Below, piece by piece: positions 1 through 26,345 of a DNA stretch of 64,000 bases. A program made the translations under genes and the position numbers. The notes below the pieces were generated by a model. That model ran no database searches, had not been told where the DNA came from, and worked only from the letters and a program-made list of their open reading frames with translations. Positions within the stretch are counted from its first letter, which is position 1, and each line of letters opens with the position of its first letter. Origin of the DNA: a virus; IMG/VR virus record IMGVR_UViG_3300024257_000005, positions 1 through 64,000 of that record; one strand, given 5' to 3'.

Positions 1-246
1 ATGAATGAGGGTGGCAAACACCAGGGCAAGAAAAATGGTCATGTCCCAAGTAAATACGAGACAATGACATATAAACAATTGGATAGATCGCTTTCAAAAA
101 TACAAGAGAGCCTCGGGTATACAATTCTTTATGAAAATCAAAAAGATGTTGAAAAACTATTGGATGCATATGTTTTTATTATTAATCACATGGTAGAAAA
201 AGCTCAAAAAGAATTAAATTCTAGTGGGACATATAAAGGGAAATAA
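1..246 (+). CDS. Hypothetical protein, probably the 3' part of a longer gene
   Basis: An open frame of 81 codons begins with ATG at the first base of the window and ends in TAA. The first residues are MNEGG, which resemble the internal TLNEGG motif of the gene at 565-1440, so the ATG may be an internal methionine of a gene entering from outside. The product is charged and lysine-rich with no recognisable domain. The next gene starts 3 bases downstream. Function unknown; whether it is complete cannot be judged. Confidence 0.6.
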   Translation: MNEGGKHQGKKNGHVPSKYETMTYKQLDRSLSKIQESLGYTILYENQKDVEKLLDAYVFIINHMVEKAQKELNSSGTYKGK

Positions 247-249
247 ATA

Positions 250-552
250 GTGAAGCTGAAGTTATTAATGGAAAAGGAAATGACGAACAAACAGCATATT
301 GCTGCCGTCAAAAAAGAGAGAGCTGCTGAAGCCAATTGAACAAAGAAATATCAGAAAATTTTTCTAGATATTACTGACGGTGAGGAAGTTTGAAGGGTTC
401 CTGGACTATCAGATGCTGAACAAACGTTTGTTAATTATACTGAAAATATCGTTAACCAAATGCAAAAATATGTCTCGTCATATGACATGCAATGAAACAT
501 CATACCCATTGAAGATAAAAAAGTCATTGAAAGATTAGCCAAAAAGCTATAA
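250..552 (+). CDS. Small hypothetical protein with three recoded TGA codons
   Basis: GTG start at 250 preceded by AAGGGA about 8 bases upstream; TAA stop. The 100-residue frame is continuous only if the TGAs at 337, 391 and 493 are read as an amino acid, probably Trp (e.g. EEVWRVPGL, DMQWNIIP). Under the standard code nothing sensible is left. The N-terminus VKLKLLMEKE matches the MKLKQLITEA and MKLRDLLLEV starts of the genes at 565 and 2620. Short N-termini ending in L-x-E resemble the capsid-targeting peptides of T4 internal head proteins. That role is an inference; no enzymatic domain is seen. Confidence 0.6.
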
Positions 553-564
553 AAGGAATAAATA

Positions 565-1440
565 ATGAAACTGAAACAACTGATAACAGAAGCAACAAAC
601 GATCCCTTAAAGCAGATAATGTCTGATTGTAATAATTTTCTATACTATTATAAGAAAGACCACTGGCCAATGATGACAACAATGATGAAAAGAATTGACA
701 CAGATCTGCTTAAAAATAAAAAAGCTATTAATGCCATAGATAAAGATATAATAAAGAAATGGATAGGCTTATTAGACGGTGGTAAAATGGGGCTTTATGA
801 GGTTGGAAAATTTTGTAGATGGTTTAAGAAAAACTATAAGGATAAAATTTCTGAAGGAACTCTCAATGAGGGTGGATATTTATCAGCAAAGACAGTAAAA
901 GGACCGGCATCAAAAGTTAAGAAATATGTAAAAGATTTGATCGATACTGCTAAAAAAGATCACGGTCCTGATGCACATTATACTGGCGATTGAGATTCTG
1001 TTACTGGTATAAATATAATTAATAAAATGTTCAAAACAAAAGATGAAGCATTTGGTTATATTGAAGATAATGCTAACAAATGAGATAATGCTATTGCTGT
1101 TCAATTTGGCAAGAAGGGACAGTGAGCCATTGGTGCATTATTGTCTGAAGGAACTCTCACTGAAAAAGTTCGCCCTGGTGAACATATGGAATTGAATCGA
1201 GCCGATAGAAAGAAAATGAAAACTCGTGGTCATATGTCTGACAAAGAAGTAAAGGGAACATTTACACTAGTAGGTAGACCACAATTTGGAGCCGTTTCGG
1301 TTCGTTCGGATGTAACAAGAAAACTATATAAAAATTTATCAGGTGACATGTTTAATCCTGCACATATAAGGAATTACCTAGACACAGAGCTTGCAGGCAC
1401 AAAATTCGGCAAAAAAGAATTAGGTCGATTTGACTATTAG
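565..1440 (+). CDS. Probable processed head-associated protein, three recoded TGA codons
   Basis: ATG start after AAAAGGAATAA; TAG stop; 291 residues when TGAs at 991, 1081 and 1123 are read through (GDWDSV, NKWDNA, GQWAIG). The frame is otherwise lost in two pieces. The start MKLKQLITEA has an L-x-T-E pattern, and the motif SEGTL(N/T)E occurs twice, near residues 98 and 194. T4-type prohead proteases cut after L/I-x-E, so these could be processing sites dividing the protein into three parts. No other domain recognised. It lies between the small protein at 250 and a neck-like gene, which fits a virion role. Confidence 0.6.
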
Positions 1441-1451
1441 GAGATAAATAG

Positions 1452-2615
1452 ATGGCAACAACACTAGGATATTTAATAAATACTACAGGGTCTGCTCCAG
1501 CAGTATCTGAATCAACGTCGTTTGGTATTTATGACAACGATGTAACATTTCAGCTTGAAGCACCTCAAACGGCAAAGTGAGTTGCATTCAGACTGGGTGG
1601 AGTTCTTATGCAAGTTGAGCTAACATTTCCAGAAGTATATAATGCTTTTGAAGAAGCCGTCAGTGAGTATTCAACATTGGTTAATAATTCACAGATCAAA
1701 GATTGATTGCTTAACTTCAAAGGATTCACAACTGGATCTGATTTAACTAACACAAATCCACTAGCTTCATATGAGTATCAAAAGAGATATTCAGACAATA
1801 TCATTGGTAGTGAAGTTGGTGTTGGTGGAGTATATGATTGGAAGACCGGTTCAATCGATCTTGTAGCAGATCAACAGTATTATGATGTTCAAGCATTGTG
1901 AGGTTCTGCTTCAGAATCAAATCAAAGACTTGAGCTTAAAGAAATTTGGCACTATCGACAGCCTGCTATTCAAAGAGGAAGAGCATATGGATCCGGACAG
2001 GCAATGATTAATTCAGAATTTGCAGGAATGGGATCTGTTGCCGGAACCGCTGGGACACAATATTTAGTTTATCCACTATATTCAGATATTTTAAGAGCAC
2101 AGGCAGTAGAGCTGTCTGATATGATCCGTAAGTCAGGATATTCTCATGAAGTTATCAATAATGTATTACGATTGACACCCACTCCTACTGAAGCAATAAA
2201 ACTTTTCTTTAGATATCGAATAAACTTTGATCCATTTACTGATGATGATAGATCGTCGCAAACAGACAGTGTTATTTCTAGTCCTGCTGACATTCCATAT
2301 TCATTCTTACCGTATACATCAATCAACTCTCCTGGAAAACAATGAATTAGAAAATATACACTAGCAATTTGTAAGGAAATGCTTGCAAGGAACAGATCAA
2401 AATTTACCTCTATTAATATTCCTGAAAATGAGGTGACTCTCGATGGCGATGCATTGCTAAGTGAAGGTCAGGCAGAGAAAGAAGCACTGATTGAGCAATT
2501 TAAAGAATTCTTAGAAGGTGTGAGCAATGAAAAATTAATGGAATCTGAAGCATTACTTCAGGAACATATGGAAAATCAATTTAAGCACATACCAATGCTT
2601 CCAAGAATAGGATAA
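1452..2615 (+). CDS. Virion neck protein, gp13-like (tentative), four recoded TGA codons
   Basis: ATG start 11 bases after the previous stop, with GGAGA upstream; TAA stop; 387 residues with TGAs at 1578, 1704, 1899 and 2343 read as Trp (TAKWVAF, IKDWLLN, QALWGSA, GKQWIRK). The C-terminal part (RNRSKFTSINIPENEV, then LDGDALLSEG and an acidic helix) is a pattern I associate with structural proteins in T4-like neck/connector operons. Position ahead of two small neck-like genes, the tail terminator and the sheath supports a gp13-type assignment, but family identity is from memory and not certain. It is the most TGA-rich gene here. Confidence 0.6.
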
Positions 2616-2619
2616 CAAT

Positions 2620-3123
2620 ATGAAATTAAGAGATCTACTATTAGAGGTCAAAGTGCCTTATTTGAAAACCGAAAAACAGGCTCGAGAATTTATCAAAAGA
2701 TTGAAACCAAATGATAAAGTTAGCGATGATGTTACTGCCATGGAGACTGGCAAGGTGTTTATGAAAAAGGGCGATAGCAAAAAGGATTTGAAAGATGCCA
2801 TTGTTAAAGAATTCAAAGGAAAAGCATCGAACGAAAATGATATGAAGAAGTTCTATAAAATTAAAATAGAACCTTTTGATAAAAACATGTCGGCAAGTGA
2901 GAAGAAATCATATGAGAAAGCAGAAGCTGATTTATATGCCAAAGTGCCTTTAGAGATTGAGCGGAAAGATGGAAAACCTTTCACAAAGAACGATCAAAAA
3001 GTTTTAGAAGACTATGGTAAATGGTGGACTAAAGAATTGGCTCACTTTGGATTTAGAGGATGGGAATTCTTTGGATCATTCAAGAATAATAAAGTGGCAC
3101 ATGGATCACCAATCTTCTATTAG
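2620..3123 (+). CDS. Hypothetical protein with capsid-targeting-like N-terminus
   Basis: ATG start 4 bases after the previous stop, TAG stop, 167 residues, no internal TGA. The N-terminus MKLRDLLLEV matches the MKLKxLxxE starts of two nearby genes. The remainder is very rich in Lys, Asp and Glu, with an aromatic C-terminus (FGFRGWEFFGSF). Lysine-rich small proteins with such a leader recall T4 internal head proteins processed by the prohead protease, which is an inference from the N-terminal motif and position only. No catalytic motif was recognised. Confidence 0.6.
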   Translation: MKLRDLLLEVKVPYLKTEKQAREFIKRLKPNDKVSDDVTAMETGKVFMKKGDSKKDLKDAIVKEFKGKASNENDMKKFYKIKIEPFDKNMSASEKKSYEKAEADLYAKVPLEIERKDGKPFTKNDQKVLEDYGKWWTKELAHFGFRGWEFFGSFKNNKVAHGSPIFY

Positions 3124-3132
3124 GAGTAATTA

Positions 3133-3600
3133 ATGACAATATATTTTTCAGATAAAGAAAAAGCATTTTTCAATTCAATCAATGAAGAACTTATAGAAGA
3201 TGTTGTTAAGCAGTTCATCGTTGTGTACAAAATTAGTGCAGCGGCTACAAGCACTGGTATCTATGGTTCGAGCTCAAATAAAACATTTGAACCAGGGATA
3301 AAGATATGATCATTGATTACTATTCTAGATCCAGAAGTAACTGTTGAGCCGGCTGCAGGAATCAAACAGAAAAGGCGTCTTGAAGTCACGATTCAAAAGA
3401 AACACCTACTAGATAATAGCTTTTATTTTGACGAAGGTGATTACTTACATTGGGATAGTCAGTATTTTGAAATACAAACAATAGTAAAACCTCAGTTTAT
3501 CCAAGGACAGCCTGATCACAATTGGCATGTCAAGCTTACTGCAGAATCTGCTGGTGTTTCAGAAATAACAATTGAAGATAGGGATAAATACGATGCCTAG
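3133..3600 (+). CDS. Head-tail connector (neck) protein, gp14-like (tentative)
   Basis: ATG start preceded by TAGGAGTAATTA; TAG stop; 155 residues with the TGA at 3307 read as Trp (GIKIWSLIT). The second half has a beta-rich pattern (EGDYLHWDSQYFEI) often seen in head-closure and connector proteins, where a D/G-D-Y-x-x-W turn precedes a strand. It lies between the gp13-like and tail-completion genes. The stop overlaps the next start by 8 bases. The exact T4 counterpart is uncertain. Confidence 0.5.
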
Positions 3601-4312
3601 ACAAGAGCAACAAAAGATATTAAATAGTGATCTACCTATTATCCAACAACAATTAGAATCTGTTGATGTGGCACTGTTGAATCATTTCAATGAGACACTT
3701 CAGCTATTTGCTGTTGAAAATAACCGAAAGGTCAGTCTTGTAACAACCATAGCACAGGCCGAACGGTGATTTCAAAAGAAACGCCAAAGAGAAAAGCGAG
3801 ACGATAAGACTGAAACTATCTATCCTGTAGCCTCATTAAGACGAGGATCAATTACTCCCAATAATGACATGTTTGTTTATAACAAAAATCAGAGTACTAT
3901 GATACCTGTTTCAAAAAGATTATCAGCTGAAAATAGCTATAAAGATAAGCCTGCTGGAACTGAAATCTATGAAGTTAAGCTTGTCTCACCTCCTGTTGCA
4001 GTTGATATCGATTATGAATTTACACTTCAAACAAAATATATGGAAACTAGTAACTCAATCATTGAGCAGATTATTGTCTATCATGGTAAGCAAGACATAG
4101 TCACTAAGGACGGTTTTACATTGCGAATGAATATTGATAGCTTTTCAGACAATTCAAACCTTGATGAAATTGCCACAGACAATATGCTATTTGAACATGT
4201 AGCATCATTCACTATTTCTTGCCTGTTATCTCTAAATATCAAGAGCAACATTGTAAATGTGAAAAAAGTTCGTACTCCAGCTAAATTTTCCTTCAGTGAA
4301 AAATTCGTATAA
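3593..4312 (+). CDS. Tail completion / sheath terminator protein, gp15-like
   Basis: ATG at 3593 inside the end of the previous gene; a TTG at 3572 is also in frame but ATG fits the overlap. TAA stop; 239 residues with the TGA at 3767 read as Trp (AERWFQKK). The length is close to T4 gp15 (about 270), and it sits immediately upstream of the sheath gene, where tail terminators are expected. A central segment (EVKLVSPPVAVDIDYEF) has the strand-rich character of these proteins. The assignment is by position and length more than by motif. Confidence 0.55.
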
Positions 4313-4336
4313 ATATACACCCTCAAAAATAAATGT

Positions 4337-4363
4337 GCGGTAACCGCCTTTTGCCTTTTTTCT
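4337..4363 (+). terminator. Weak possible terminator before the sheath gene
   Basis: GCGG-TAA-CCGC can form a 4 bp stem with a 3-base loop, followed by CTTTTGCCTTTTTTC. The short stem makes this a weak candidate. Position between the neck genes and a new promoter-like motif supports transcription ending here. Confidence 0.35.
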
Positions 4364-4365
4364 TT

Positions 4366-4374
4366 TATATTTAT
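4366..4374 (+). promoter_or_regulatory. TATATTTAT promoter-like motif upstream of sheath
   Basis: Exact TATATTTAT, 42 bases before the sheath ATG. The same 9-mer recurs in seven other intergenic gaps, usually 26-54 bases before a start codon. Inferred to be a phage promoter core, probably late. Confidence 0.5.
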
Positions 4375-4416
4375 AATTATATTATAAAATTTTAAACTTT
4401 ATTAGGAGAAAAACAA

Positions 4417-6666
4417 ATGGCTAGTGAAAAAATTATATCTGCTGGCGTGTTCACCCAAGAAAATGATTTATCATTTTTCAGTAGAGGCCTTTCAGAGATT
4501 GGCGCTGCTGTAATTGGATGGACTAAAAGCGGACCTGCATTTCAACCAACTATTGTTGAAAGCTATGATGAATTCACACAAGTATTTGGCGGGAAAAACG
4601 AAGAATTATTTACACCATATTTGGCTGACGAATATTTAAGAAATTCTGGAAAACTTACCGTTACAAGAGTACTTGGTGGTGGAACATTTTCATACACAAC
4701 AGTTGGCGAATTAAGTTCTGGTAGCATACTTCATGCAGTTATCAGACCTACTGCTTCAGCTTCTGGAGACTTCATAATTGATGTCACTGGATCAACATCT
4801 GAAGTATCAATGTCGGCTTTCGACTTACACTTAAGTTGCTCAGCAGACGAAACAACATATACAAGCGTATCAATGAATCCTTCAGACTCAAACTTTGTTG
4901 GAAAAATCATTGGTGAAAATCCTAGAGGACCTGGATATTTCTACCTTGATACATATTTCAAAACTCAGATCTCAGCTTCAATTGCTATTGGTGCATTAAT
5001 GCCAACAGGATCTGTTTCAAGCTCAACTTCAGCGATTATTACAACTACAGGTTATTCGCACGGAACATCTCCAACTATAATTTCACAAACATTCGGCTCT
5101 ACAAATCATGAGTTATTCAACTTCCATATGTTATCAGACGGAACTGAATCTAATCAATTGATCAAAGCTGGTGTTTTTGCTGTTAAAGCAAGTGGTTCTG
5201 TACCAGGGTCAGACTATGGCTCATTTGGTGTAGTTATCCGTAAGTACTCAGATAATGATGCAAATCCTGTTATCTTAGAAACATACAACAACCTAACACT
5301 TGATCCAGATTCACCAAATTACATTGCACGGAGAATTGGAGATCAATCGGTCACAACAGCAGCAACTGGTAAGAAAACAGTTAATGGCGACTTCCAGAAT
5401 ATTTCTAAATACGTTAGAGTATCTATGGTGGTTGCATCTTATCCAAAAGATGCTGTTCCATTTGGATTTAAGAATTATAAGAAATATAATTCAACAGCTC
5501 CAGATGCAGTCTATGCATTATCACAATCATATGATTCAGATTATAATTCTCGTGCTTACTACGGAATTGATTTTGAAGATGATGATGTGAAAAACTTCAA
5601 CGATGCACTGCCTACAACAAAAGCAAACAACTCGTCAAATTTCTTGCTGAGCAATTGCATTGGCTATGCTTCAGGTGTTTACACAGGTGCAATTTCATTA
5701 ACATCTGCAATCGGTACTAAACAATTCATGTTTGGTTTCCAAGATGGATTTGATGGATTTGATCCACGTAAGCCAATTAGTGAAGATCGAACATTTACAC
5801 TAGCAACCACTTCTGGCTCTGTTGAGTTTAAGAAAGCGCTTGATTCTACAAAGAGTCAGGATGAATATGATTTCAATATGCTTATCGTACCAGATTTAGA
5901 ATATGGAAATTCATCATACGTAATTAAACAAGCACTTAGTGTTTGTGAATCTCGTGGTGATTGTTTCCTACTTATGGATCTAGGTGGAAAAACAACTTCA
6001 CGTGATACATATATTACACGTACACAAGCGATCGATAGCTCTTATGCTGCTACATATTACCCATGGGTGCAAATCGGCGATGATGAAAATAGCAAACCAG
6101 TTTGAGTTCCACCTTCAGTTGTTATGGCAGGAATAATTGCCTACACAGATAAAGTATCTCATGAGTGGTATGCGCCAGCCGGCATCAACCGTGGTGGTTT
6201 AACACGAGTTATTAGAGCGTATGATCGTCTTGATAGAGATGATAGAGACGCACTTTATGAATCTCGAATCAATCCAATTGCAACATTTCCAGATACTGGT
6301 GTTGTTGCTTGGGGGCAGAAAACATTGCAAGTCAAAGCTTCGGCTCTTGATAGAATCAATGTAAGACGTCTATTAATCAAAATCAAGAAGACAGTTGCAT
6401 CTTCAACAAAATACTTACTATTCGAGCAGAGTGACGAAGCTCTATGGTCTAAGTTTAAAAATATTGTTAATCCTGTATTGACTGGAATTTTGGCTAACGC
6501 TGGAATCTCTGAGTTCAAGGTAGTTATGGATGAAACAAATAATACTCCAGATGTAATTGATAGAAATGAAGTAAAAGGTGAGATTTTTATTAAGCCTAAG
6601 AAATCTGCAGAGTTCATCCTGTTAGACTTCAACATAATGGCGCAATCAGCGACATTTAATAACTAG
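4417..6666 (+). CDS. Contractile tail sheath protein, gp18-like
   Basis: ATG start with AGGAGAAAAACAA upstream; TAG stop; 749 residues, somewhat longer than T4 gp18 (659). The N-terminus (VFTQENDLSFFSRGLSEIGAAVIG) is the typical sheath start in which the protein wraps onto its neighbours. The C-terminal domain has the conserved W-V-P-P-S...AGIIAYTDK...EWYAPAGINRGG arrangement. The TGA at 6103 falls exactly on the Trp of that VWVPPS motif, one of the best arguments for TGA=Trp. If TGA were a stop, the sheath would lose its last 187 residues, including the core contraction domain. High translation demand fits the strong ribosome site and the upstream TATATTTAT motif. Confidence 0.93.
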
Positions 6667-6669
6667 GAA

Positions 6670-6678
6670 TATATTTAT
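6670..6678 (+). promoter_or_regulatory. TATATTTAT promoter-like motif upstream of tube gene
   Basis: Exact copy of the 9-mer, 38 bases before the tube ATG. It starts 3 bases after the sheath stop codon, so it would allow separate expression of the tube protein. Confidence 0.5.
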
Positions 6679-6716
6679 TAATATATGCTTAATATGAATT
6701 TTATAAGGAGAATATA

Positions 6717-7229
6717 ATGGCAAACGAAGACTTATTAAACCCAGGAAAATGGTCTGATAATCTGCAGCCAATGAGACAAGATAACTGGTTCTTAGAGTTT
6801 CCAGATGTAAATGGAAATCAAATTCCTGCTTATACATGTATGAGCGCTGGAAGACCAAAATTGTCAAATGAAGAAGTTGAAATTCCTTTCATGAATAACA
6901 CCGCTTATTTCAAAGGCAAATCAAAATGGGAAACGCTAGACATTGTTCTACGCACACCTATTTCAGAAGCCCTTGCTTTAAGAGTCATGGAATGGATCAT
7001 GCTTCACCACGATGCTGAATCAGGTGTTGACGGTTATAAGAGTGAATATGCAAAAGATATCACTTTGAAACTAACATCGCCTTTAGGAACAACCATTGAA
7101 TCATGGAGATTGCACCAATGTTGGATCACCAATAGTGATTTTGGTAGTTTAGATATGAGTTCGGCTGACGCTGTAGAAATTAGCTTAACACTAAGATTTG
7201 ATTACGCTGTGTTGGAATTATCACAGTAA
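6717..7229 (+). CDS. Tail tube protein, gp19-like
   Basis: ATG after AAGGAGAATATA; TAA stop; 170 residues, matching the T4 gp19 length (163). It follows the sheath gene as in T4. The sequence has the tube-family pattern: an N-terminal W-S-D-N segment, RQDNWFLEFP, PKLSNEEVEIPFMN, and a C-terminal EISLTLRFDYA strand. No TGA codons. A terminator follows, so sheath and tube may have their own transcripts. Confidence 0.88.
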   Translation: MANEDLLNPGKWSDNLQPMRQDNWFLEFPDVNGNQIPAYTCMSAGRPKLSNEEVEIPFMNNTAYFKGKSKWETLDIVLRTPISEALALRVMEWIMLHHDAESGVDGYKSEYAKDITLKLTSPLGTTIESWRLHQCWITNSDFGSLDMSSADAVEISLTLRFDYAVLELSQ

Positions 7230-7255
7230 GTCACTTCATATAGATCAAACAAATG

Positions 7256-7285
7256 AAAGCCTCTATTTATTTAGGGGCTTTTTTA
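7256..7285 (+). terminator. Rho-independent terminator after tube gene
   Basis: AAAGCCTC (7256-7263) pairs with GGGGCTTT (7274-7281), one G-T wobble, around a 10-base A/T loop, followed by a run of six T. Placed 27 bases after the tube stop. Confidence 0.8.
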
Positions 7286-7292
7286 TTAGAGA

Positions 7293-7301
7293 TATATTTA
7301 T
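7293..7301 (+). promoter_or_regulatory. TATATTTAT promoter-like motif upstream of gp26-like gene
   Basis: Exact copy of the 9-mer directly after the terminator and 26 bases before the ATG at 7328, the shortest spacing in the set. Likely restarts transcription for the baseplate genes. Confidence 0.5.
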
Positions 7302-7327
7302 TACTATAACGAAAACTGGAGGTGTTT

Positions 7328-8128
7328 ATGACACAAGAAGTAAAAAATAAGACATTTTTTGTTGATCTTCCGAGTGAAGGAAGAGCATATCCTCAAGAAA
7401 GTCCTTTGTATGAAGGTACTGTTGAGTTACGATATGGAAGTTCTGGGGATGAAAATATCCTATTGAACCAGCATTATATTGTCAGAGGCGAAGTGTTCGA
7501 CAGACTACTTGAGCAGCTATTAGTAAATAAATCTATTGATATTGCTGATCTTTTAGTCGGAGATAAAAATGCCTTAGTAATTGCAACAAGACAAGCCATG
7601 TATGGAAACACGTATCCGATTAAATTGAAATGCCCTAAATGTGGTGAAGAGATAAACGACTCTTTTGATTTAACTCATTTACACAAATTCAAGTTTCCTG
7701 AAGATGAAGATTTCAATCCCAAACAACTGACATATACATCTGAAGCTGGAAATGTTTGAGGATTCAGGCTGCTTACAGAGGCAGATATCAAAGATCTTTC
7801 ACAGATAGCAAGGAAGATGAAAAAATTAAACATTAGTAGAGATGGACAGGTCACTGTTACGGCAAGAGCCGAACGGCAGCTATTGTCTGTTAATGATATA
7901 ACTGATGTTAACAAAACGGTAGAGTTCTTTAGAGGAATCTCTTCAATAGAGTCACAGGAGCTGAGAAATGCTATATTAGATATGACGCCAGACATCGACC
8001 TAAGTGTTGATTTTACATGTGACAACCTCATGTGTGGATATTCTGACTATATTGATATTGAGCTTAACTCAGACTTTTTTTGGCCAAAGGGCAGATCACG
8101 AACAAAACGTTCTAGAGGAAGTGTTTAA
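7328..8128 (+). CDS. Baseplate hub / tail assembly chaperone, gp26-like
   Basis: ATG at 7328 with GGAGG five bases upstream; a GTG at 7322 is in frame but lies inside that ribosome site. TAA stop; 266 residues with TGA at 7757 read as Trp (GNVWGFRL). The N-terminus (LPSEGRAYPQESPL) and LLVGDKNALVIATRQ are typical of the T4 baseplate gp26 family. CPKCGEE and a second C-x4-C (CDNLMC) suggest bound zinc. The gene lies between tube and tape measure, the usual place for tail assembly chaperones that are made with a frameshifted extension. Seven T residues near the 3' end may be such a slip site. Confidence 0.8.
8075..8083 (+). other. Candidate programmed frameshift site (T7GG)
   Basis: TTTTTTTGG, read TTT TTT TGG in the gp26-like frame. 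A +1 slip (or -2 with one extra Phe) enters the overlapping frame that runs to 8255. Homopolymer slip sites at this genome position, between tube and tape measure, are well known in tailed phages. A sequencing error in the run would give the same picture. Confidence 0.5.
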
Positions 8129-8255
8129 TCTAGTATATTATGGTGGCTTTGGATTTTCAGAAGTTTGAAATATGCCAGTTCCTATGAAGAAGTTTTTCAC
8201 ACGAAAACTAATAGAAGCTAAAAAGGCGGAGAAGAAGTCATATGAGGAGAAATAA
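8082..8255 (+). CDS. gp51-like C-terminal extension reached by frameshift
   Basis: This frame begins at the T7 run and stays open to TAA at 8253, adding 57 residues, with TGA at 8166 read as Trp (FSEVWNMPVPM). The residues EQNVLEEVFNLVYYGG followed by a P-x-x-x-K-x-F segment resemble the short helical domain that follows gp26-type proteins in other phages. There is no ATG or clear ribosome site for independent translation; only TTG at 8052 or 8058 could serve. The frame overlaps the last 47 bases of the gp26-like gene. Interpreted as a fused extension made by a fraction of ribosomes. Confidence 0.55.
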
Positions 8256-8256
8256 A

Positions 8257-8496
8257 GTGGCACAACTAATTGTTGAAGGAAAGATGTTTGAGGGCATTTC
8301 CGACATAGCAAAAAGACTTGTCGGAGGTTTGTTTTCAGGGAAGATTAAGAAAGTGAAACTTGGTGATGATAAAACTGCAAAAGGTGCAGGCCAAGCTTTA
8401 AAAAATATTGGAGCAGAGCTTGATAAGCTTGATAAGATATTTGACGAGAACCCTGAGTATGAAGAATTGCTAATGAAAAAATTGCGTGAAATTTAA
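8257..8496 (+). CDS. Small hypothetical protein before tape measure
   Basis: GTG at 8257, one base after the stop of the frameshifted frame, with GAGGAG 7 bases upstream. An ATG at 8242 is in frame but lies just ahead of that GAGGAG ribosome site and has no site of its own, so GTG is preferred. 79 residues, starting MAQLIVEGKMFEG; lysine-rich with helical heptads toward the end. The LIVEG start recalls the L-x-E processing motifs at the left end. Position next to the tape measure suggests a tail assembly role; nothing in the sequence proves it. Confidence 0.6.
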   Translation: MAQLIVEGKMFEGISDIAKRLVGGLFSGKIKKVKLGDDKTAKGAGQALKNIGAELDKLDKIFDENPEYEELLMKKLREI

Positions 8497-8518
8497 ATAA
8501 AAAATAAGTTGAAATAAT

Positions 8519-10966
8519 GTGGCTAGAGGTAAACAAGACACACCAAAAGATCCAAATGCAAGTCAGCGAGAGTTCCTTAGAGTTCAAGAAGAGATCTTAA
8601 AGAAAACAGGCTCGACGGAAAAGGTTCAGCGTAGATTTTCTAAATGGACTCAAGAGGTTAGCTCTTTTCAACAAGATATTCTGGGCACTGTTACAAATGA
8701 ATTAGACAAAAAGATAGAAATCATGAAGGTAACTAGACAGGTTGGAGAAACCCTAGCTACTAATTTTACACACAATCAAGAAATATTGGAAAGCTCTAGA
8801 GCCATCCTTGAAAACACTGACGACTATGTTAAGAGTCTTCAAGGGGCTTCAGATTTTGTCGATAGAGTAACAGGAAGTATTCCACTAATATCTGAAGCAA
8901 TGCAGCAATCTATGGCTGATACAGTTAAAAACTTTTTTGCTCCTCAAATAGAATGGTGGAACGACCTTCAGGCAAAAGCATTAAAAATTTGGAAGTCTTG
9001 GGGAATGGGTGCAAAAATGGGACTCGTTGCTGTAGCACTAGCATTTGTAGGTGTTTGGAAAATATTCAAAGAGCTAGATGAAGCACTAGAAGACTTTATG
9101 CATACTCTGGGAAGTACTAGAAAAGAAGCAAATCAATTAGAAGATATGGCTTTAAATACGTACACCAATTATGCAAAATATGGAGTTTCCCTAAGTGAAT
9201 CATTAGATATCACACAGGCTATTGTTGAAGAGCAAGGTCATATGGCTGACATATCACAAGAGCTTATTAGTCAGGCTGCAATAATGGCACAGGCATTTGG
9301 AATGTCATCAACTGAAGCAGCAATCTTGGTTGATCTACAAAAAGAGGCTCTTGGTCTTACAGATGCACAAATTATTAATAATGCTAAAATGGTTAAAGCT
9401 ACTGCTCAAATATACAATGTTGGTGCCGGTCGTGTTGCTAGAGATTTAGCAGATTCTGCAGAAGAGGTTGCTCTGTTCTCTGGAGCCGGTATGGAAAATC
9501 TTATAGAAAGTGCAGCATACGCAAGAAGACTTGGCGTCACATTTAAAGAAATTGCCACAATAGCTGAATCATTGTTAGACATAGAATCATCAACCAGTGC
9601 TGCAATGCAAGTACAGATGCTGACAGGAAGAACAATAAATTTAAGTCAGGCTAGAAGCATGGCATTGAATGGTGATATTCAGGGTGCTAATGAAAATATT
9701 TTAAATCAACTTGGTTCTCATGCAGAATTAAGTCAGGCTGATTATTTTACTAAAAAAGCCATCTCCGAATTATTAGGTACTGATGCAAAAACTTGGCTTT
9801 CAATGAAGAACGATCAAGAGCAGATTTTAAATATTTCAAAAGATACAAAAAAGATTTACGATTCATATCTAGGCGTTTCATTAGCTGAAGCATTAGATGT
9901 GAGCGAAACACTTGGCAGATTAGGGAAACTGAAAGCTCAGCTAACTTCAATATTCAAACCTATTCTCTTACCATTAGTTAAGGGATTCAACTTTTTTTTA
10001 GATGTACTAATCAATATAACTGATGCAATAAATAGGGCTCAAGATGGCTGGGGCGAATGGTCTAAAGGATTGGCTAATTCTGCAATATCTCTTGTTGGAA
10101 TCTCTGCTTCTATATTTGTTCTCTATAAAGGATTCAAGCTCATGTCTAAGTTGAGCATTTTTGGAAAGCTGGCTAAAGGAGCAGCATCTGGAGGTGGTCT
10201 AATAAGTAAAGGGCTTGGACTTGGAAAAGGAATGGCAGGAACAATGCTTAAGGGAGCGCTTGGATTAGCTGCATTAGGAGTTGCATTAATCCTTGTAGGA
10301 AAAGGTGTTCAAATGTTTGCCGATGTTGGTATCGATCAAGTTCTTGTAATGACAGCAGCATTAGTTGGTTTAGGTGTTGCTGGAGCACTACTTGGAACCG
10401 TGTCAGGACTGGCGATTGCTGGAGCTGTTGGATTAGCTGCACTTGGAGCTGCTTTATGAGTGGTTGGAAAAGGAATGCAACAATTGGCCAACGTTAATGC
10501 TGATCAACTTTCAGCAATGATTGTTCCATTATTAAAACTAGGAGCTGTAGGTGTTCTATTAGGAGCCTTTGCTCTTCCTGCATTATTAGGTGCTGCGGCT
10601 TTAGCGGCATTAGGAGTTGCACTTACTATTACTTCAATTGCTGCAGAAAGATTTTCCAAAGCAATCTTTTTAACTCCGGCAGAAGGAATTACCAGACTGG
10701 TCCAGATGCAAAAAGATATTGATATGTCGCACATGAAATCTGAATTGGAAAGTGTTGTTGATCCTATACGTGAGCTAAATAAGGAATTTTCAGAATTGAA
10801 TACAAACATTTTAAAGCTTAGTAAAATGAAAACCAAAGATATATTTGGTGGATCAAAGGGTGGAAGAAGCTCTCAAACAATAAGACAGCCTATTAAATTA
10901 GAAGTAAAACTAGATAAATATACTATTGCAAAAGCAATGGAAACTGTAATCTTAGAAGGAAATTAA
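8519..10966 (+). CDS. Tail tape measure protein, gp29-like
   Basis: GTG start (product MARGKQDTPKD) after a weak GTTGAAATAAT site; TAA stop; 815 residues with TGA at 10457 read as Trp (GAALWVVGKGM). It is the longest tail-region gene and follows the gp26/51-like pair, as expected for a tape measure. The first third is helical and amphipathic. From about residue 505 to 720 it has hydrophobic Gly/Ala/Leu segments, including two similar modules (GLAALGVALILVGKG / GLAALGAALWVVGKG), which may form the membrane-inserting part released during DNA entry. The recoded TGA sits inside the second copy, where the first has Leu-Ile-Leu, so a large hydrophobic residue fits. Confidence 0.85.
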
Positions 10967-10967
10967 A

Positions 10968-12326
10968 ATGCCAGATAGTCCAGTATATGAAGTTGATCTT
11001 TCGCCTGTAATTAGATCGAGCGATAGCGGAAGTCAATCAGATCCTAATCTAGTTGGGACTCATATTGTAGTAGATACTGGTGGAACCGATCCTAATATAT
11101 CCGGAAGTCATGCTGCTGATAGTGGAAGTGTTGCCGATGTAATATTTACAATTGATAGAACAGTTGTAGAATTAATTCAGACTATTGATTCTGATTACTA
11201 TGCTGCAATTGACAAAGCTCATCTAGAAGGATGACGTCAAGGCAGCAACGATGAAAATGGTGAGGGAGGATCAAGACTCGTTGAAAGACCATCAACTCCA
11301 TTTACTGAAAATGAGGCAAAGCAGACAAAAGATGTCTTAGATAAACTATCTAGCTTCTTTGGCGCTGACGCACTTAAGAGAAGATTATTAAGACGGGTTG
11401 ATGAAAAAATTTATTATGCTACTTCTGCAGCTAAAGCATGGGCAAGAAAAAAGGTTGCGACAGCTTTCAATGATGGCATTAATAAAGTTAGAAGCACAAG
11501 TTATTATACTGGAGTTGAAGCAGCAGTAAAGCAGAAGATAGATGATTGAGTTCCTAAGTCGTTAATTAAACCCAGTGGGAAGGGTCGTGAACAGCGAGAT
11601 AAAGATGGCACTAATTCGTCAGTTCGAAATAGACTAACAGGCGATCAAGATGCCAGTAATCAAAATCAATTCAACTCGGGCGTATCGCCAAGTATGGGTA
11701 ACGACTGGCTATGGGGAGTGAATCATCCTGCTATAACCTCTAACAAAGAGTTAAATTTTGAACCAGGACCTGTTAAGCCTAGCGATCCAATTATGACAAG
11801 AGTTCCTATGCCATTCTACTTTGTTGATGTCAGAACTGACAATCATTGCTTTTTCAATGCTACAATTTCAGATTTATCCGATTCATATTCACCAAACTGG
11901 ACACGTGAGTCATATTTTGGTAGAACAGAAGGAATATCAAAATATGTAAACACAGATAGAACGATTTCAGTAAACTTTACAATTATTGCAGATGATGCTG
12001 ATGATTTAGAATCTATATATAAAAAATTAAACTGGCTAGCTCAAGCCGTGTACCCAAAATATAAAGAAAACAGTGCTGCATATGGATATGAAAGCTCACC
12101 AATCTTACGAATGAGAATTGGAGATTTAATAAAATATAATTCAACAGGAATTGGCGGATATTTAACTACACTGGACTATGCATACAGCATGGATGCCGGT
12201 TGAGAAGTGACAACTGTTGGTAAAAAGGTTCCAAAAAAGATTGATGTATCTATGGCATTCACGGTTATTCATGACTTCATGCCAGACTTTGGTTCTACAT
12301 TTTATGATGTAAAGGCGGTAAATTAA
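10968..12326 (+). CDS. Baseplate tail-tube cap protein, gp48/gp54-like
   Basis: ATG one base after the tape measure stop; TAA stop; 452 residues with TGAs at 11232, 11547 and 12201 read as Trp (LEGWRQG, DDWVPKS, DAGWEVTT). The first 220 residues are Ser/Asp-rich and low complexity. The C-terminal half has the tube-initiator pattern: SDSYSPNWTRESYFGRTE, TDRTISVNFTI, LNWLAQAVYPKY, LRMRIGDLI and GWEV.....PKKIDVSMAFTVIHD. Such proteins cap the baseplate hub and start tube growth. The Trp in GWEV is a conserved position in this family as I recall it. The long N-terminal extension is unusual. Confidence 0.75.
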
Positions 12327-14452: not shown

Positions 14453-15799
14453 ATGATCAATATTATAGATAATAGTCTAGAATATGACAGTATGATTTCT
14501 AACATCACAAAAACAAGTAAAATATATCTACAAATTTCATCTGGAACAGATGAAGACAATTTTCTTTTTATCCCTGAAAGGGACATCTTATATGTTATAG
14601 ATCAAGTCTATTTAGACAAATTCACCTTTGATATAAAATTGATTGAGACAGATATCTATCTATATAATACCAGACTTAACATAGCCACAAATTCTACAGT
14701 CATTGATACTGATGCTCTATACTATTCTATATTCAAAGTAGAATTGAATGAGTCAAATTTAAATGAGAATAATATTCCACTAAAATTAGCACAGACTAGA
14801 GTTAACAATTTCATACATACCAGAAACAGTGAAGCTGCCATTATTCCAACTACCTTAGCTAGTGAGTACTACTATTTATTATTCAAAACTCTTAATGGTT
14901 TCATAGAAGATTATAAACATGCTCTAAATAATCCAGAATATGTAGCTTTCATTAAGAGAAAGAATGCATTCAAACTATTAATGACATCAGGTGTTCATGT
15001 AAATAATAATCTCATAGAAGGCATTAAAGAATCAGCATATTCATTAGAACCCACTATCCAGAAAACTGTAGATACCTTAGGCAATAATAAAGATTCAATA
15101 ATATATCCAGAATTTAATTTTGCTAGATCTCCAACTGGTAGAGTAGCTTCATCTTATAATAGTCTAAACATGATGGCCTTGAATAAATCAGATGAGACCA
15201 GACTGTTTTTTAATTCTAGATTCAAAGATGGATATTTAGTAGAGTTCGACTTTGATGGAATGCATTTAAGAATAATAGCCAGCATTCTAAATTTTGAAAT
15301 TCCATTAGACATTCCAGCTCATAAATTTATGGCTACAATATTTTTTGACAAGCATATAGATGATATAACTGATGATGATGTTAAGAGATCTAAGAAGAAG
15401 ATCTGGTCTATTCTATATGGGACTATATATTTTGATCACCATTTTATTAAAAAGATCAATGCTTTCAAGGAGTACAAAGTTCTCAAGACCAAGACTCCAC
15501 TTGGAAGGAAAATTGATTTAGGTGTAGATGAAGATAAGAGATTCAACTATTTCATCCAGAAGTTTGAGGTCGACTATATAACCTCAGTTCTATCTAATGT
15601 CTCTAAATATATTATTGATAGCAGGATAAAAATGAGACCTGTGATCTATCAGTATGATGCTATTATATTTGACATTCCACCAGATGAGATAGGCCAGCTA
15701 AAACACATACAAGACATTTTAGAAACATCAATCGAGGGTTTGCATTTGAAAACAAAAATGAAAGCCGGTAAAAATTTTAAAAAACTACAATTATTATAA
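14453..15799 (+). CDS. Minimal family A DNA polymerase (polymerase domain only)
   Basis: ATG start, TAA stop, 448 residues. The family A core is visible: ARSPTGRVAS (the TGR motif before the fingers), motif A VEFDFDGMHLR with Asp at about 266, motif B RSKKKIWSILYGT near 312-324, and motif C QYDAIIFD with Asp402. Motif C begins with Gln where Pol I usually has His. There is no 5' nuclease and no room for a complete 3'-5' exonuclease domain, so proofreading would have to come from another protein, for example the exonuclease at 25013. The window also encodes DnaE, so this enzyme may do repair, primer processing or recombination synthesis. Very low G+C even for this genome. Confidence 0.85.
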   Translation: MINIIDNSLEYDSMISNITKTSKIYLQISSGTDEDNFLFIPERDILYVIDQVYLDKFTFDIKLIETDIYLYNTRLNIATNSTVIDTDALYYSIFKVELNESNLNENNIPLKLAQTRVNNFIHTRNSEAAIIPTTLASEYYYLLFKTLNGFIEDYKHALNNPEYVAFIKRKNAFKLLMTSGVHVNNNLIEGIKESAYSLEPTIQKTVDTLGNNKDSIIYPEFNFARSPTGRVASSYNSLNMMALNKSDETRLFFNSRFKDGYLVEFDFDGMHLRIIASILNFEIPLDIPAHKFMATIFFDKHIDDITDDDVKRSKKKIWSILYGTIYFDHHFIKKINAFKEYKVLKTKTPLGRKIDLGVDEDKRFNYFIQKFEVDYITSVLSNVSKYIIDSRIKMRPVIYQYDAIIFDIPPDEIGQLKHIQDILETSIEGLHLKTKMKAGKNFKKLQLL

Positions 15800-15808
15800 G
15801 GAGTTAGT

Positions 15809-16219
15809 ATGAAACAGTTCCAGTTACTTTGCACATTTTCTACAGAAAAGCTTGTAAATAGAAAAGTAGAAGAAATCAAAAGCAAATTCGAAATTCAGAA
15901 TGATTCAATATTCATTTTACAGAGCACATCAAATAAAGACGACTGGTACATTACATACAATGCATTACTAGCCTGAGACGATAACTACAAAGACTTGGTT
16001 ACCAACACAATCAATATTCACAGGAATAAAGAAACCAACACTCTGTATACAATCAATGCTCTCAATGAGGTGATCAAGAATTGCAACAATGGAGTTCTAG
16101 ACACTAACTATAAAATCGACTGGGATAATTATAGAAACTCTATTTTGTTATATAGAAATGAGATGCTTTTGACAATAAAGACAAAGCTCAATGGAATAAT
16201 AAAATGAGAAAAAATTTAA
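15809..16219 (+). CDS. Hypothetical protein with two recoded TGAs inside the replication block
   Basis: ATG after AAGGAGTTAGT; 136 residues ending at TAA 16217, with TGAs at 15974 (LLAWDDNY) and 16205 (IIKWEKI then stop). The second TGA is four codons from the true stop. The N-terminus MKQFQLLCTFSTEKL looks strand-forming, and a DDWYITYN segment follows. No known domain recognised. It is co-directional with, and 9 bases after, the polymerase gene. It is the only gene between 14.4 and 40.8 kb that carries TGA codons. Confidence 0.6.
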
Positions 16220-16247
16220 AAATAATTGATCTTTTGTAGAATTTCAT

Positions 16248-16256
16248 TATATTTAT
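16248..16256 (+). promoter_or_regulatory. TATATTTAT promoter-like motif upstream of SSB
   Basis: Exact 9-mer, 54 bases before the SSB ATG, in a 91-base gap that otherwise holds only A/T-rich sequence and the GAGGAG ribosome site. Confidence 0.45.
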
Positions 16257-16310
16257 CAATGATTAACAAATAACAATTAAACCTATTAAAACAAAACGAG
16301 GAGAAAAACA

Positions 16311-17105
16311 ATGGACGTAAAAGCCGTAAAAGAACGTCGTAAGCAATTCGCTGACAAATTCAAAAGAAATACAGACATATGGAAAGCCCCTAAGGGCACT
16401 CATGATGTAAGGGTCGTTCCTTATATTAACAACTCTGCTGACCCATTTGAAGAACTATGGTGGCACTGGAACATTGGCAATCGTGGTTTTCTTTGTTTAA
16501 AGAAAAACAAAGGAGAAGATTGTCCAATCTGTAACATGGCATCTGAAATGTGGAAATCAGAAGAAGATGAGGATAAAGAAATTGCAAAGAAAATGTTTGC
16601 AAATGTAAGATTCTATGCTCCTGTCTTACCAAGAGACGCTGAAGAAGAAGGTGTTAAATGGTGGGGCTTAAGTCAGACTCTCTATGATGCATTGACAAGT
16701 GAAGTATTGCTTGATCAGGTCGGAGATTATACTGACATAGAAGCAGGCCGTGACATTGCTGTCACATTTAAGACAAAAGAAGAAACTGGAAATGATTATG
16801 GTAAAGTATCAGTTGATGTTAAGTTTACCACATCACCACTTTCTGAAGATAAAGAGGTTGTTGCAAAATCACTCAAAGAGCAACCAAGTCTTATTGAAAT
16901 GTACCCCTACAATACTGCTGATGAACTAACTGAAGTATTAAGAAAATGGCTATTCCCAGAAGATGCTGAAGAAGAGGCTGCTTCAAAACCAGCTGCTAAA
17001 TCTGCACCAAAGGAAAAGGTCGAATCGCTTAAGACTGAAAGTGAAGATGATTCAGCCGGTACTGATGAAAGTTTAGAAAACAAATTCAAAAAACTTCTAG
17101 ACTAA
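16311..17105 (+). CDS. Single-stranded DNA-binding protein, gp32-like
   Basis: ATG after GAGGAGAAAAACA, a strong site that fits a protein needed in quantity; TAA stop; 264 residues (T4 gp32 is 301). Features of the gp32 family are visible: a basic N-terminal arm (VKERRKQFADKFKR), an OB-fold core with a zinc site (H-x9-C-x8-C-x2-C in HWNIGNRGFLC...DCPIC), and an acidic C-terminal tail. It would coat ssDNA and recruit the recombinase and helicase encoded just downstream. It has its own promoter-like motif and is followed by a strong hairpin. Confidence 0.88.
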   Translation: MDVKAVKERRKQFADKFKRNTDIWKAPKGTHDVRVVPYINNSADPFEELWWHWNIGNRGFLCLKKNKGEDCPICNMASEMWKSEEDEDKEIAKKMFANVRFYAPVLPRDAEEEGVKWWGLSQTLYDALTSEVLLDQVGDYTDIEAGRDIAVTFKTKEETGNDYGKVSVDVKFTTSPLSEDKEVVAKSLKEQPSLIEMYPYNTADELTEVLRKWLFPEDAEEEAASKPAAKSAPKEKVESLKTESEDDSAGTDESLENKFKKLLD

Positions 17106-17117
17106 ACACATAATAAT

Positions 17118-17158
17118 ATAGAGACAGTTTTGAGCTAATCATTACTGTCTCTATTTTC
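17118..17158 (+). terminator. Strong hairpin terminator or attenuator after SSB
   Basis: ATAGAGACAG (17118-17127) and CTGTCTCTAT (17145-17154) form a perfect 10 bp stem with a 17-base loop, followed by TTTTC. It lies between SSB and recombinase and could raise SSB levels relative to the downstream genes. Confidence 0.75.
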
Positions 17159-17176
17159 ATTTAGGGAGATTTCGCT

Positions 17177-18475
17177 ATGGACAAAGATGTACGTGATAAA
17201 TTAGTTGATGGAATTTTCTCAACTTTAAATACGAAATTCAAAGATACAAATCAAAAGTCATTCCGACTATCTGATCCTGATTCACCAGAAAATGCTAAAG
17301 AGTTTTGCTCTACTGGGTGTACTCCCCTAGACGTTGCAATATCAAATCGTGTGGGTGGAGGAATACCATACGGAAAGATCACAGAACTTAATGGACTAAA
17401 CTCATCTGGAAAATCATTGTTGCTTGCAACTATTTTGGTTGAAAATCAGAAGAAGGGCGGAATATCAATATTCTTAGATAATGAGTTTGCTGTAGATGGA
17501 ACTTTTTATGAAGCAATTGGCATGAACCTAGATCAACTAGTGTATTCACAAATTGAATATATTGAAGATATGCTTGATGCGATTACTGAAATTACACTCA
17601 AAATAAGAAAAGAAAATCCTACCATACCAATTGCAATTGGATTAGATTCTATTGCCGGAGCAAAAACGAGAAGTGATGCTGAAGGAATGGAAAAGGGTGG
17701 ATATAATACTCATAAAGCAATTATCTTATCTCAGAAGCTACCCATAATTGTAGCACTTTGTGCAAAACATAATATTGCCTTAATAGCTACACAGCAGCTG
17801 AGACAAAAAGTTGGTGGAATGGGATTTGGCGATCCATATGTATCTGCTTCAGGTGGTATGGCATTGGCCTTCTTTGCTTCTGTTAGAATCAGACTTGCAA
17901 CTATTGGAAAAATTAAAGCAGGCGATCTGGTTGTTGGAGTTAAATCTAGAGCCAGGGTAGAGAAAACAAGATTAGGGCCTCCATTTAGGGAAGCCGAGTT
18001 TGAAATCTTTTTTGACTCTGGTATTGATGATGCTAAATCCTGTCTTGAACAGCTAAAATTCTATAAAGTTGTTGAAGGAACCACATGGAAAATCTTCAAA
18101 GAAGATCTACATTTACCAGGGTTTGATCTTGAATGGAGAGATAAAGAAACACATTCAAAAGAGGCTGTTTTATTGATGTCGCCAAAAGGTAAAGCAATAA
18201 CTACAAAACCTGATGTAGGATTCTATCCCAAATTTCAACTTCCCACTTGGAGAAACATGATGAGAGATGAAAATTTCAGACGAGTTGTTGCAGAACAAAT
18301 CACAGACCTCAGCGTCAGAAAATATGCTGGCTATATGGAGAAAGACGACATGACAACATTGGTCACAACTGAAGATGAAAATGCTGAAGTCGTAGAGGAA
18401 GCAAAAGCTACTAAAAAAGAGAAGCTTAAAGCAATCCTAGCCAAACAGGGTTCTAACTCAGAAAATGGTGAATAA
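17177..18475 (+). CDS. uvsX: RecA/UvsX-type recombinase
   Basis: ATG after TTAGGGAGATTTCGCT; TAA stop; 432 residues (T4 UvsX 391). Walker A GLNSSGKS lies near residue 73, a Walker B-like IGLDSIAG follows, and the DNA-binding loop region GGMGFGDPYVSASGGMALAF is present. This makes presynaptic filaments on ssDNA for recombination-dependent replication and repair, working with the gp32-like protein upstream. The C-terminal 60 residues are acidic and lysine-rich. The 3' end overlaps the next gene by 11 bases if the ATG at 18465 is used. Confidence 0.9.
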   Translation: MDKDVRDKLVDGIFSTLNTKFKDTNQKSFRLSDPDSPENAKEFCSTGCTPLDVAISNRVGGGIPYGKITELNGLNSSGKSLLLATILVENQKKGGISIFLDNEFAVDGTFYEAIGMNLDQLVYSQIEYIEDMLDAITEITLKIRKENPTIPIAIGLDSIAGAKTRSDAEGMEKGGYNTHKAIILSQKLPIIVALCAKHNIALIATQQLRQKVGGMGFGDPYVSASGGMALAFFASVRIRLATIGKIKAGDLVVGVKSRARVEKTRLGPPFREAEFEIFFDSGIDDAKSCLEQLKFYKVVEGTTWKIFKEDLHLPGFDLEWRDKETHSKEAVLLMSPKGKAITTKPDVGFYPKFQLPTWRNMMRDENFRRVVAEQITDLSVRKYAGYMEKDDMTTLVTTEDENAEVVEEAKATKKEKLKAILAKQGSNSENGE

Positions 18476-19559: not shown

Positions 19560-19560
19560 T

Positions 19561-20973: not shown

Positions 20974-20982
20974 GAGAATAAA

Positions 20983-24134: not shown

Positions 24135-24150
24135 TAAAAAGGAAATAGAA

Positions 24151-24720: not shown

Positions 24721-24730
24721 GGAGGTTACA

Positions 24731-25000
24731 GTGGCAAAGAAAAAAGGTTCAAGTAAAAATCGAAAAGAAAACTATAAGAGATATGCAGCTAGAAATCAAA
24801 GAGATGTTGCTAATCAAAAATCAGTTGTCAACCACTGGTTCAGCGTTTTAAGCAGACAAATCAAGCGCCTAATTGATACACGTGGAGAAGAAAATAGAGA
24901 GTTATATAGAATGCTCCGTGTAGAGATTAAGGACCGTCTTAAAAACAATGTGCTAACCAAAAAACAGATGCAAAGTATTGTTTCTGAGTTGACAGCATAG
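24731..25000 (+). CDS. Small basic hypothetical protein
   Basis: GTG with AAGGAGGT seven bases upstream, one of the strongest ribosome sites in the window; TAG stop; 89 residues. Very basic N-terminus (KKKGSSKNRKENYKRYAARNQR) then a helical segment. May bind nucleic acid by charge. No family recognised. Between clpP and the exonuclease, 10 and 12 bases from its neighbours. Confidence 0.7.
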   Translation: MAKKKGSSKNRKENYKRYAARNQRDVANQKSVVNHWFSVLSRQIKRLIDTRGEENRELYRMLRVEIKDRLKNNVLTKKQMQSIVSELTA

Positions 25001-25012
25001 TAGGAGAATTAT

Positions 25013-26020: not shown

Positions 26021-26046
26021 TAAAATAGCTTTTGGAAAAGAATACT

Positions 26047-26055: not shown

Positions 26056-26092
26056 CAATATGAATTACAATAAAACAAACCAAGGAGGTTCC

Positions 26093-26320: not shown

Positions 26321-26345
26321 GAAGAGCAAATACAATAGTATAATC

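What the first reader, a model, noticed from the sequence alone, without database searches (positions are those of the whole stretch)
1..12326. Recoded TGAs are concentrated in virion genes and nearly absent from replication genes
19 of 27 TGAs fall in the first 12.4 kb of structural genes. From 14.4 to 40.8 kb there are only two, although DnaE, RNR and ligase are long and contain many TGG codons. Late-gene enrichment of recoded stops has been described for recoded phages. It would let early genes be made by host-code ribosomes while late proteins wait for a suppressor tRNA, acting as a timing switch.
Basis: partly seen in the sequence, partly recalled or inferred. Interest (0 to 1): 0.8.

Follow-up and report, generated by a model that had tools for sequence, protein, structure and literature searches.

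The report
Phage late genes favour recoded UGA
An uncultured T4-type virus of bacteria reads the stop codon UGA as the amino acid tryptophan almost only in genes of its late class, as already described for some gut phages, but here no dedicated suppressor tRNA was found, so how UGA is read remains open.

Summary
The window is part of a 105.7 kb record of a gp23-type contractile phage; overlapping contigs extend it to 143 kb, with one gap.

In 170 genes I count 86 in-frame TGA and 492 TGG. TGA/(TGA+TGG) is 73/243 (30%) in the virion/late block and 13/335 (4%) elsewhere (Fisher 1e-18; 0 of 50,000 gene permutations). Other purine-ending codon boxes do not differ, so composition is not the cause.

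TGA is tryptophan: conserved Trp columns of terminase, neck and sheath proteins fall on TGA. About 80 relatives (43-49% identical at the capsid protein) use TGG instead, so the recoding is lineage-specific.

A late-like promoter motif, TATATTTAT, and an early-like one predict TGA use too, including outside virion genes. The most abundant virion proteins avoid TGA (1/23), suggesting costly decoding.

The suppressor-tRNA timing switch is only partly supported. No UCA tRNA, TrpRS or release factor was found. The phage has only tRNA-Trp(CCA), with an unusual D-arm (C9, G11-C24) shared by ordinary bacteria. Late-gene recoding is known from gut phages; this is a new member in a T4-type lineage.

The parts
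250..552 (+). late-block gene, 3 TGA / 0 TGG
565..1440 (+). late-block gene, 3 TGA / 3 TGG
1452..2615 (+). neck / head-tail adaptor (phrog_211), 4 TGA / 2 TGG; TGA codon 298 is Trp in 61/61 relatives
3133..3600 (+). late-block gene, 1 TGA / 2 TGG
3572..4312 (+). late-block gene, 1 TGA / 0 TGG; TGA codon 66 is Trp in 12/14 relatives
4366..4374 (+). late-like promoter motif TATATTTAT, 51 nt before the tail sheath gene
4417..6666 (+). tail sheath, 1 TGA / 5 TGG; TGA codon 563 is Trp in 9/10 relatives with that column in the capsid-linked set
6670..6678 (+). late-like motif before the tail tube gene
6717..7229 (+). tail tube, 0 TGA / 6 TGG (high-copy virion protein that avoids TGA)
7293..7301 (+). 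late-like motif before the baseplate hub gene
7328..8128 (+). baseplate hub (phrog_150), 1 TGA / 1 TGG; start at 7328 has the better Shine-Dalgarno
8519..10966 (+). large late-block gene, 1 TGA / 9 TGG
10968..12326 (+). late-block gene, 3 TGA / 5 TGG
14453..40799 (+). replication / nucleotide block (pol-like ORF, SSB, UvsX, 5'-3' exonuclease, DnaB-like, RNR, DnaE, helicase, ligase): 2 TGA / about 97 TGG, both TGA in 15809-16219
15809..16219 (+). conserved gene between pol-like ORF and SSB, 2 TGA (one 3 codons before the end)
37558..37588 (+). early-like promoter motif TGTTT N15-28 G(T)TATATT
41533..41541 (+). late-like motif upstream of the two TGA-bearing genes 41762 and 43110
41762..43108 (+). 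glycosyltransferase, 1 TGA / 9 TGG (FTDPRY[TGA]IWLW)
43110..43625 (+). SWIM zinc-finger protein, 1 TGA in CSCPDFKYR[TGA]E
46244..46516 (+). small gene, 1 TGA / 1 TGG
48653..48886 (+). small gene, 1 TGA / 1 TGG (start uncertain)
53802..54314 (+). gene with 1 TGA / 0 TGG behind the late-like motif at 52014
55570..55941 (+). gene with 1 TGA at codon 11, behind an early-like motif (55025)

Best explanation
UGA is read as tryptophan in this phage, but usefully only late in infection. In the infected cell UGA is at first (mainly) a stop, so TGG-to-TGA changes are purged from early genes. In late genes they are tolerated once a UGA-reading capacity has built up; that capacity stays imperfect, so the highest-output virion genes still avoid TGA. 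Shown: UGA = Trp, TGA concentrated in late-class genes, lineage specificity. Inferred: that decoding capacity rises with time. Not identified: the reading agent. In order of plausibility it is dosage of the phage's own tRNA-Trp(CCA) made from late transcription, a UCA suppressor tRNA in the unsequenced gap, or a host factor.
For: TGA = Trp: terminase TGA codons 117 and 297 align to Trp in 39/39 and 40/41 matches; neck codon 298 61/61, sheath codon 563 9/10. TGA was masked as X in the queries, so the alignments were not biased. Class difference 73/243 against 13/335. Composition control flat. Named virion genes 21/59 against named early enzymes 1/107, p = 4e-10. Promoter classes, found without regard to TGA: TATATTTAT occurs 11 times in the window against 2.6 expected; 16 of 22 sites lie within 150 nt upstream of a start (p = 2e-8); the first gene behind a late-like motif has 22 TGA/56 TGG, behind an early-like motif 0/26 (p = 0.0015). 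Outside the virion block the association remains: 11/180 against 2/155, Fisher p = 0.025, permutation 645 of 20,000. Examples: an endonuclease-like gene at G000 69217-69894 has 3 TGA/0 TGG behind a late-like motif, and an SbcCD-like gene lying among late genes has 0/6. High-copy virion proteins 1/23 against 68/199 for other late-block genes, p = 0.0014. In non-late genes 3 of 13 TGAs lie within three codons of the end, where termination is harmless.
Against: No agent for late UGA decoding was found: no UCA tRNA, RF or TrpRS. The tRNA-Trp(CCA) D-arm (C9, G11-C24) also occurs in 37 bacterial genomes, mostly of groups not known to recode UGA, and in phage phAss-1, which recodes TAG. The promoter motifs are computational; there are no expression data. 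At least six TGAs lie inside ordinary non-late genes, so early reading is not nil. The last-promoter rule puts many replication genes behind the late-like motif before SSB, with 0 TGA, so unit assignment is coarse. The C-terminal threshold was chosen after seeing the data, and the high-copy set was named from T4 knowledge after seeing the per-gene counts.
Confidence: 0.62

Rival explanations
1. Module history: the virion block has been under a UGA = Trp code for longer, or came from another recoded phage, and the bias records ancestry rather than expression timing.
For: The late block is one contiguous module and a shift test keeping gene order is weak (rank 13 of 147). T4-type phages exchange modules (general knowledge).
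Against: About 80 relatives found by their capsid gene have 913 TGG and 2 TGA in the matching genes, so no recoded donor lineage is seen. TGA appears in late-motif genes outside the module, such as the endonuclease at G000 69217, the glycosyltransferase at 41762 and the SWIM gene at 43110, and is absent from SbcCD inside it. Base composition is the same in all classes.
Confidence: 0.15
2. The host natively reads UGA as Trp (Mycoplasma-like code 4); the phage shares that code and the early genes have simply not yet drifted, or are more constrained.
For: No phage-encoded code-change machinery found. TGA stops are essentially gone, at most three possible C-terminal cases. 22 of 27 cultured code-4 phages infect Mycoplasma or Spiroplasma (PMC11210395).
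Against: Under free synonymy TGA should approach the 62-75% A-ending share of the Lys, Glu, Gln and Leu-TTR boxes; early genes are at 2-5% and late at 30%. The named relatives come from Flavobacterium, Microcystis and Rhodothermus hosts, which use the standard code (general knowledge).
Confidence: 0.13
3. A conventional UCA suppressor tRNA exists in the unsequenced gap and is expressed late: the first reader's model in full.
For: The genome is incomplete: a gap remains between the fibre gene end (L025) and L153. Some code-4 phages carry Sup-TCA tRNA (11 of 73, PMC11210395).
Against: All 27 tRNAs found lie in one array within G000 that is fully covered and holds no UCA. A custom scan that recovers the known tRNAs it was tried on at score 29 finds no UCA candidate above 23.
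Confidence: 0.2

Closest known systems
crAss-like phages with TGA (code 4) or TAG reassignment in late genes (Yutin et al. 2021, PMC7886860)
   Same: [quoted passage not shown] some lack a detectable suppressor tRNA; codes switch over short phylogenetic distances.
   Different: This is a contractile-tailed phage with a gp23 capsid, gp17-type terminase and gp21-type protease, with 27 tRNAs, tmRNA and RNA-repair genes.
Recoded gut phages with late (lytic) gene bias (Borges et al. 2022; known here through citing papers)
   Same: In-frame TGA in late structural genes, proposed to prevent premature production of late proteins (described in PMC10746230).
   Different: The code-4 examples described there carry a UCA suppressor tRNA, TrpRS and RF1; none was found here.
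UGA-reading tRNA-Trp(CCA) variants (Hirsh G24A, A9C; PMC13092985, PMC11805395)
   Same: The phage tRNA-Trp keeps the CCA anticodon and has C9, the base of the A9C suppressor, and an altered 11-24 pair (G-C).
   Different: Function untested; the 5-bp anticodon stem is intact; the same D-arm occurs in ordinary bacteria.
Immutovirus / Microcystis phage Mel-JY01 / Rhodothermus phage RM378 group of T4-type phages
   Same: Capsid about 35-46% identical, and sheath 36-39% identical to the first two; shared gene order of the late block with Mel-JY01.
   Different: No in-frame TGA in the homologous genes of Mel-JY01 and Immutovirus; Mel-JY01 uses TGA as a stop in 6 of 39 genes.

Membership tests
Phage with UGA-to-Trp recoding (translation table 4) | In-frame TGA falls on conserved Trp positions | tested here: met
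   Terminase 39/39 and 40/41, neck 61/61, sheath 9/10
Phage with UGA-to-Trp recoding (translation table 4) | TGA not used as the gene stop | tested here: met
   Genes end in TAA or TAG when TGA is read through; at most three C-terminal TGAs could be real stops. ORFs were called with TAA/TAG only, so this rests on the reading frames staying coding
Late-gene-biased recoded phage | Recoded codon enriched in late or structural genes | tested here: met
   30% against 4%, p = 1e-18; promoter-class test
Late-gene-biased recoded phage | Late genes shown to be expressed late | not testable with these tools
   Only promoter-like motifs available
Suppressor-tRNA-driven code switch | Encoded tRNA with UCA anticodon | tested here: not met
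   None in about 143 kb; one gap unsequenced
Suppressor-tRNA-driven code switch | Encoded RF1 or TrpRS | tested here: not met
   PF00472 absent from G000, G001, G005 and PF00579 absent from G000, G005, G011
Hirsh-type UGA-reading tRNA-Trp(CCA) | D-arm change that raises UGA reading | tested here: inconclusive
   C9 and G11-C24 present but also in ordinary bacteria; function unmeasured
T4-type (gp23) contractile phage | gp23 capsid, gp17-type terminase, gp21-type protease, sheath and tube | tested here: met
   PF07068, PF03237, PF03420, phrog_23, phrog_4542

The most novel reading that the evidence does not exclude
The code switch uses no suppressor tRNA. The phage's own tRNA-Trp(CCA), carrying C9 and G11-C24, lies 0.7 kb behind a late-like promoter motif (G000 69190) and directly after an endonuclease gene with three in-frame UGAs whose 3' end overlaps it by 15 nt. 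Late transcription would raise the dose of a near-cognate UGA reader until it competes with RF2, giving a dose-dependent, leaky recoding confined to late genes.
Probability: 0.2. Interest if true: 0.78.

Novelty: new member of a known kind. Interest (0 to 1): 0.45.

Why it matters
It extends late-biased stop recoding, described in crAss-like and other gut phages, to a T4-type lineage whose roughly 80 closest sampled relatives are standard-coded, so the change can be studied near its origin. The two promoter-like classes separate timing from gene function. The avoidance of TGA in capsid, tube and sheath suggests decoding efficiency is limiting. Together these make timed decoding testable against ancestry.

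Tried and rejected
1) Glycine or another meaning of TGA: rejected, conserved TGA columns are Trp. 2) Closing G000 as a circle: rejected; an ORF appears to run across the ends but three contigs continue upstream with other sequence. 3) T4 late promoter TATAAATA: no clear enrichment; TATATTTAT was found instead. 4) C9 in tRNA-Trp as proof of UGA reading: rejected as diagnostic, since 37 bacterial genomes share the D-arm. 5) TGAs near doubtful starts or in overlapping ORFs (48617, 53751, 66729, 71500, 71560, 78226, 79127, 81409, 86914, 87732-87780): dropped after checking Shine-Dalgarno and overlaps. 6) SNPs between near-identical contigs for TGG/TGA polymorphism: too few, none at Trp codons. 7) A recoded sister among 80 capsid relatives: only a single internal TGA in L145, which otherwise looks standard-coded. 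8) Host from relatives or tmRNA tag: not settled; 50 of 76 genes have a Shine-Dalgarno-like site, unlike the Flavobacterium phage (3 of 32).
Full report
What the window is. It is positions 1-64000 of a 105,677 bp virus record, a contractile-tailed phage with all predicted genes on one strand. Near-identical contigs (99.7-99.99%) extend it: L006 adds 5.5 kb upstream, L151/L153 another 13.7 kb, and L024/L025 18.6 kb downstream. In total 143 kb were analysed; one gap remains between the end of L025, inside a fibre gene, and the start of L153. Families found: gp23 capsid, gp17-type terminase, gp21-type protease, sheath, tube, hub and wedge. Replication genes include DnaE, RNR, UvsX, SSB, helicases and NAD ligase. 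The habitat and host were not established by any tool.

The observation. Over 170 genes, TGA/(TGA+TGG) is 73/243 in the late block, 2/102 in the replication block and 11/233 elsewhere. Late against the rest gives Fisher p = 1e-18 and 0 of 50,000 gene-label permutations; it is not driven by the large fibre gene (63/222 without it, p = 2e-16). The A-ending share of the Lys, Glu, Gln, Leu-TTR and Arg-AGR boxes is alike in the three classes (0.62-0.86 according to the box), and Trp frequency is similar. So freely interchangeable TGA would be near 0.65: late genes stand at 0.30 and early genes at 0.02-0.05.

TGA means tryptophan. With TGA masked as X, terminase codons 117 and 297 fall on Trp in 39/39 and 40/41 matches, neck codon 298 in 61/61, codon 66 of gene 3572 in 12/14 and sheath codon 563 in 9/10. 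Other TGA columns are variable in relatives, so some Trp residues are new. Relatives do not share the recoding: the closest named phages have no in-frame TGA in homologous genes, and 80 loci found through the capsid gene (43-49% identical) have 913 TGG and 2 TGA there, neither of which signals recoding on inspection.

Timing without relying on gene function. Because all genes lie on one strand and the late block is one module, I looked for promoter-like signals in the gaps between genes. Two classes appear: TATATTTAT, 20 forward and 3 reverse in the sequence then at hand, 11 in the window against 2.6 expected; and TGTTT N15-28 G(T)TATATT, 11 forward and 0 reverse. Of 22 TATATTTAT sites in the full set, 16 lie within 150 nt upstream of a start (p = 2e-8). 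They precede sheath, tube, hub, fibre and the capsid unit, so I call the class late-like; the other precedes DnaE-unit and accessory genes. The first gene behind a late-like motif has 22 TGA/56 TGG, behind an early-like motif 0/26 (p = 0.0015). Outside the virion block, late-like units have 11/180 and early-like 2/155 (Fisher p = 0.025; permutation 645 of 20,000). Late-like non-virion carriers include an endonuclease-like gene (G000 69217-69894, 3/0), a glycosyltransferase (41762) and a SWIM protein (43110). SbcCD, lying among late genes, has 0/6. These points favour expression class over module ancestry, but the unit assignment is coarse: the replication genes behind the SSB motif have 0 TGA.

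Signs that UGA reading is limited. Capsid, tube and sheath, the high-copy virion proteins of T4-type phages (general knowledge), have 1 TGA in 23 Trp codons, the other late-block genes 68 in 199 (p = 0.0014). In non-late genes, 3 of 13 TGAs lie within three codons of the end (16205, 87802, 90346), where stopping is harmless; 87802 overlaps the next gene's ATG. Both thresholds were chosen with the data in view.

Who reads UGA. No UCA tRNA was found by ARAGORN, Rfam or a custom scan, no release factor in G000, G001 and G005, no TrpRS in G000, G005 and G011. The 27 tRNAs cover all 20 amino acids and include tRNA-Trp(CCA) at G000 69,880 with C9 and G11-C24. A9C and G24A in E. coli tRNA-Trp(CCA) promote UGA reading (PMC13092985; PMC11805395). 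But the same D-arm occurs in 37 genomes of mostly Elusimicrobia, Omnitrophota and Patescibacteria and in phage phAss-1, whose tRNA-Trp is 86% identical, so it is not diagnostic. It lies behind the late-like motif at 69190.

What is known. Yutin et al. (PMC7886860) report that in most recoded crAss-like phages reassignment is confined to putative late genes, and that suppressor tRNAs are sometimes missing. Borges et al. (2022, cited in PMC10746230) propose the late-gene regulation model, with suppressor tRNA, TrpRS and RF1 in some code-4 phages. Only 11 of 73 predicted code-4 phages carry Sup-TCA (PMC11210395). The present phage is therefore a new member of a known kind, in a T4-type lineage, with the decoding route unknown.

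Verdict. Observation confirmed and extended. Interpretation partly supported: late-class confinement yes, suppressor tRNA not found, switch function untested. Shown: UGA = Trp, class bias, lineage specificity. Inferred: late rise in decoding capacity and its cost.

Noticed in passing
L001:1100-10856 (G000 65,100-74,856): 27 tRNA genes covering all 20 amino acids, interspersed with small genes; a tmRNA gene at L002:7118-7475 with tag GTNYAIAA.
   Followed up: partly
window 61740-62768; G000 85755-86741, 87034-87813, 88145-89245: Full RNA-repair set: Rnl2-type and Rnl1-type RNA ligases, polynucleotide kinase-phosphatase (PNKP) and RlaP, as if the phage faces tRNA-cutting defences.
   Followed up: partly
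window 46518-47036: Acb1-like anti-CBASS protein (PF23474).
   Followed up: no
L006:2736-3173 and G000 69217-69894: Two endonuclease-like genes (HNH homing type, and one resolvase/PD-(D/E)XK-like) with 3 TGA each and 1 or 0 TGG, richer in TGA than most virion genes.
   Followed up: partly
L025:7328-10693: One ORF of 1121 aa joins an SbcD-like N-terminal part and an SbcC-like C-terminal part.
   Followed up: no
L032:4001-4073 (phage phAss-1): tRNA-Trp 86% identical to this phage's, with the same D-arm, in a TAG-recoded gut phage.
   Followed up: partly
L145:4420: A single in-frame TGA at a Trp position of the neck gene in a relative that otherwise appears standard-coded: error or incipient recoding.
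   Followed up: partly
window 57860-58303: No confident gene call; a possible ORF 57896-58300 with 2 TGA was not counted.
   Followed up: no
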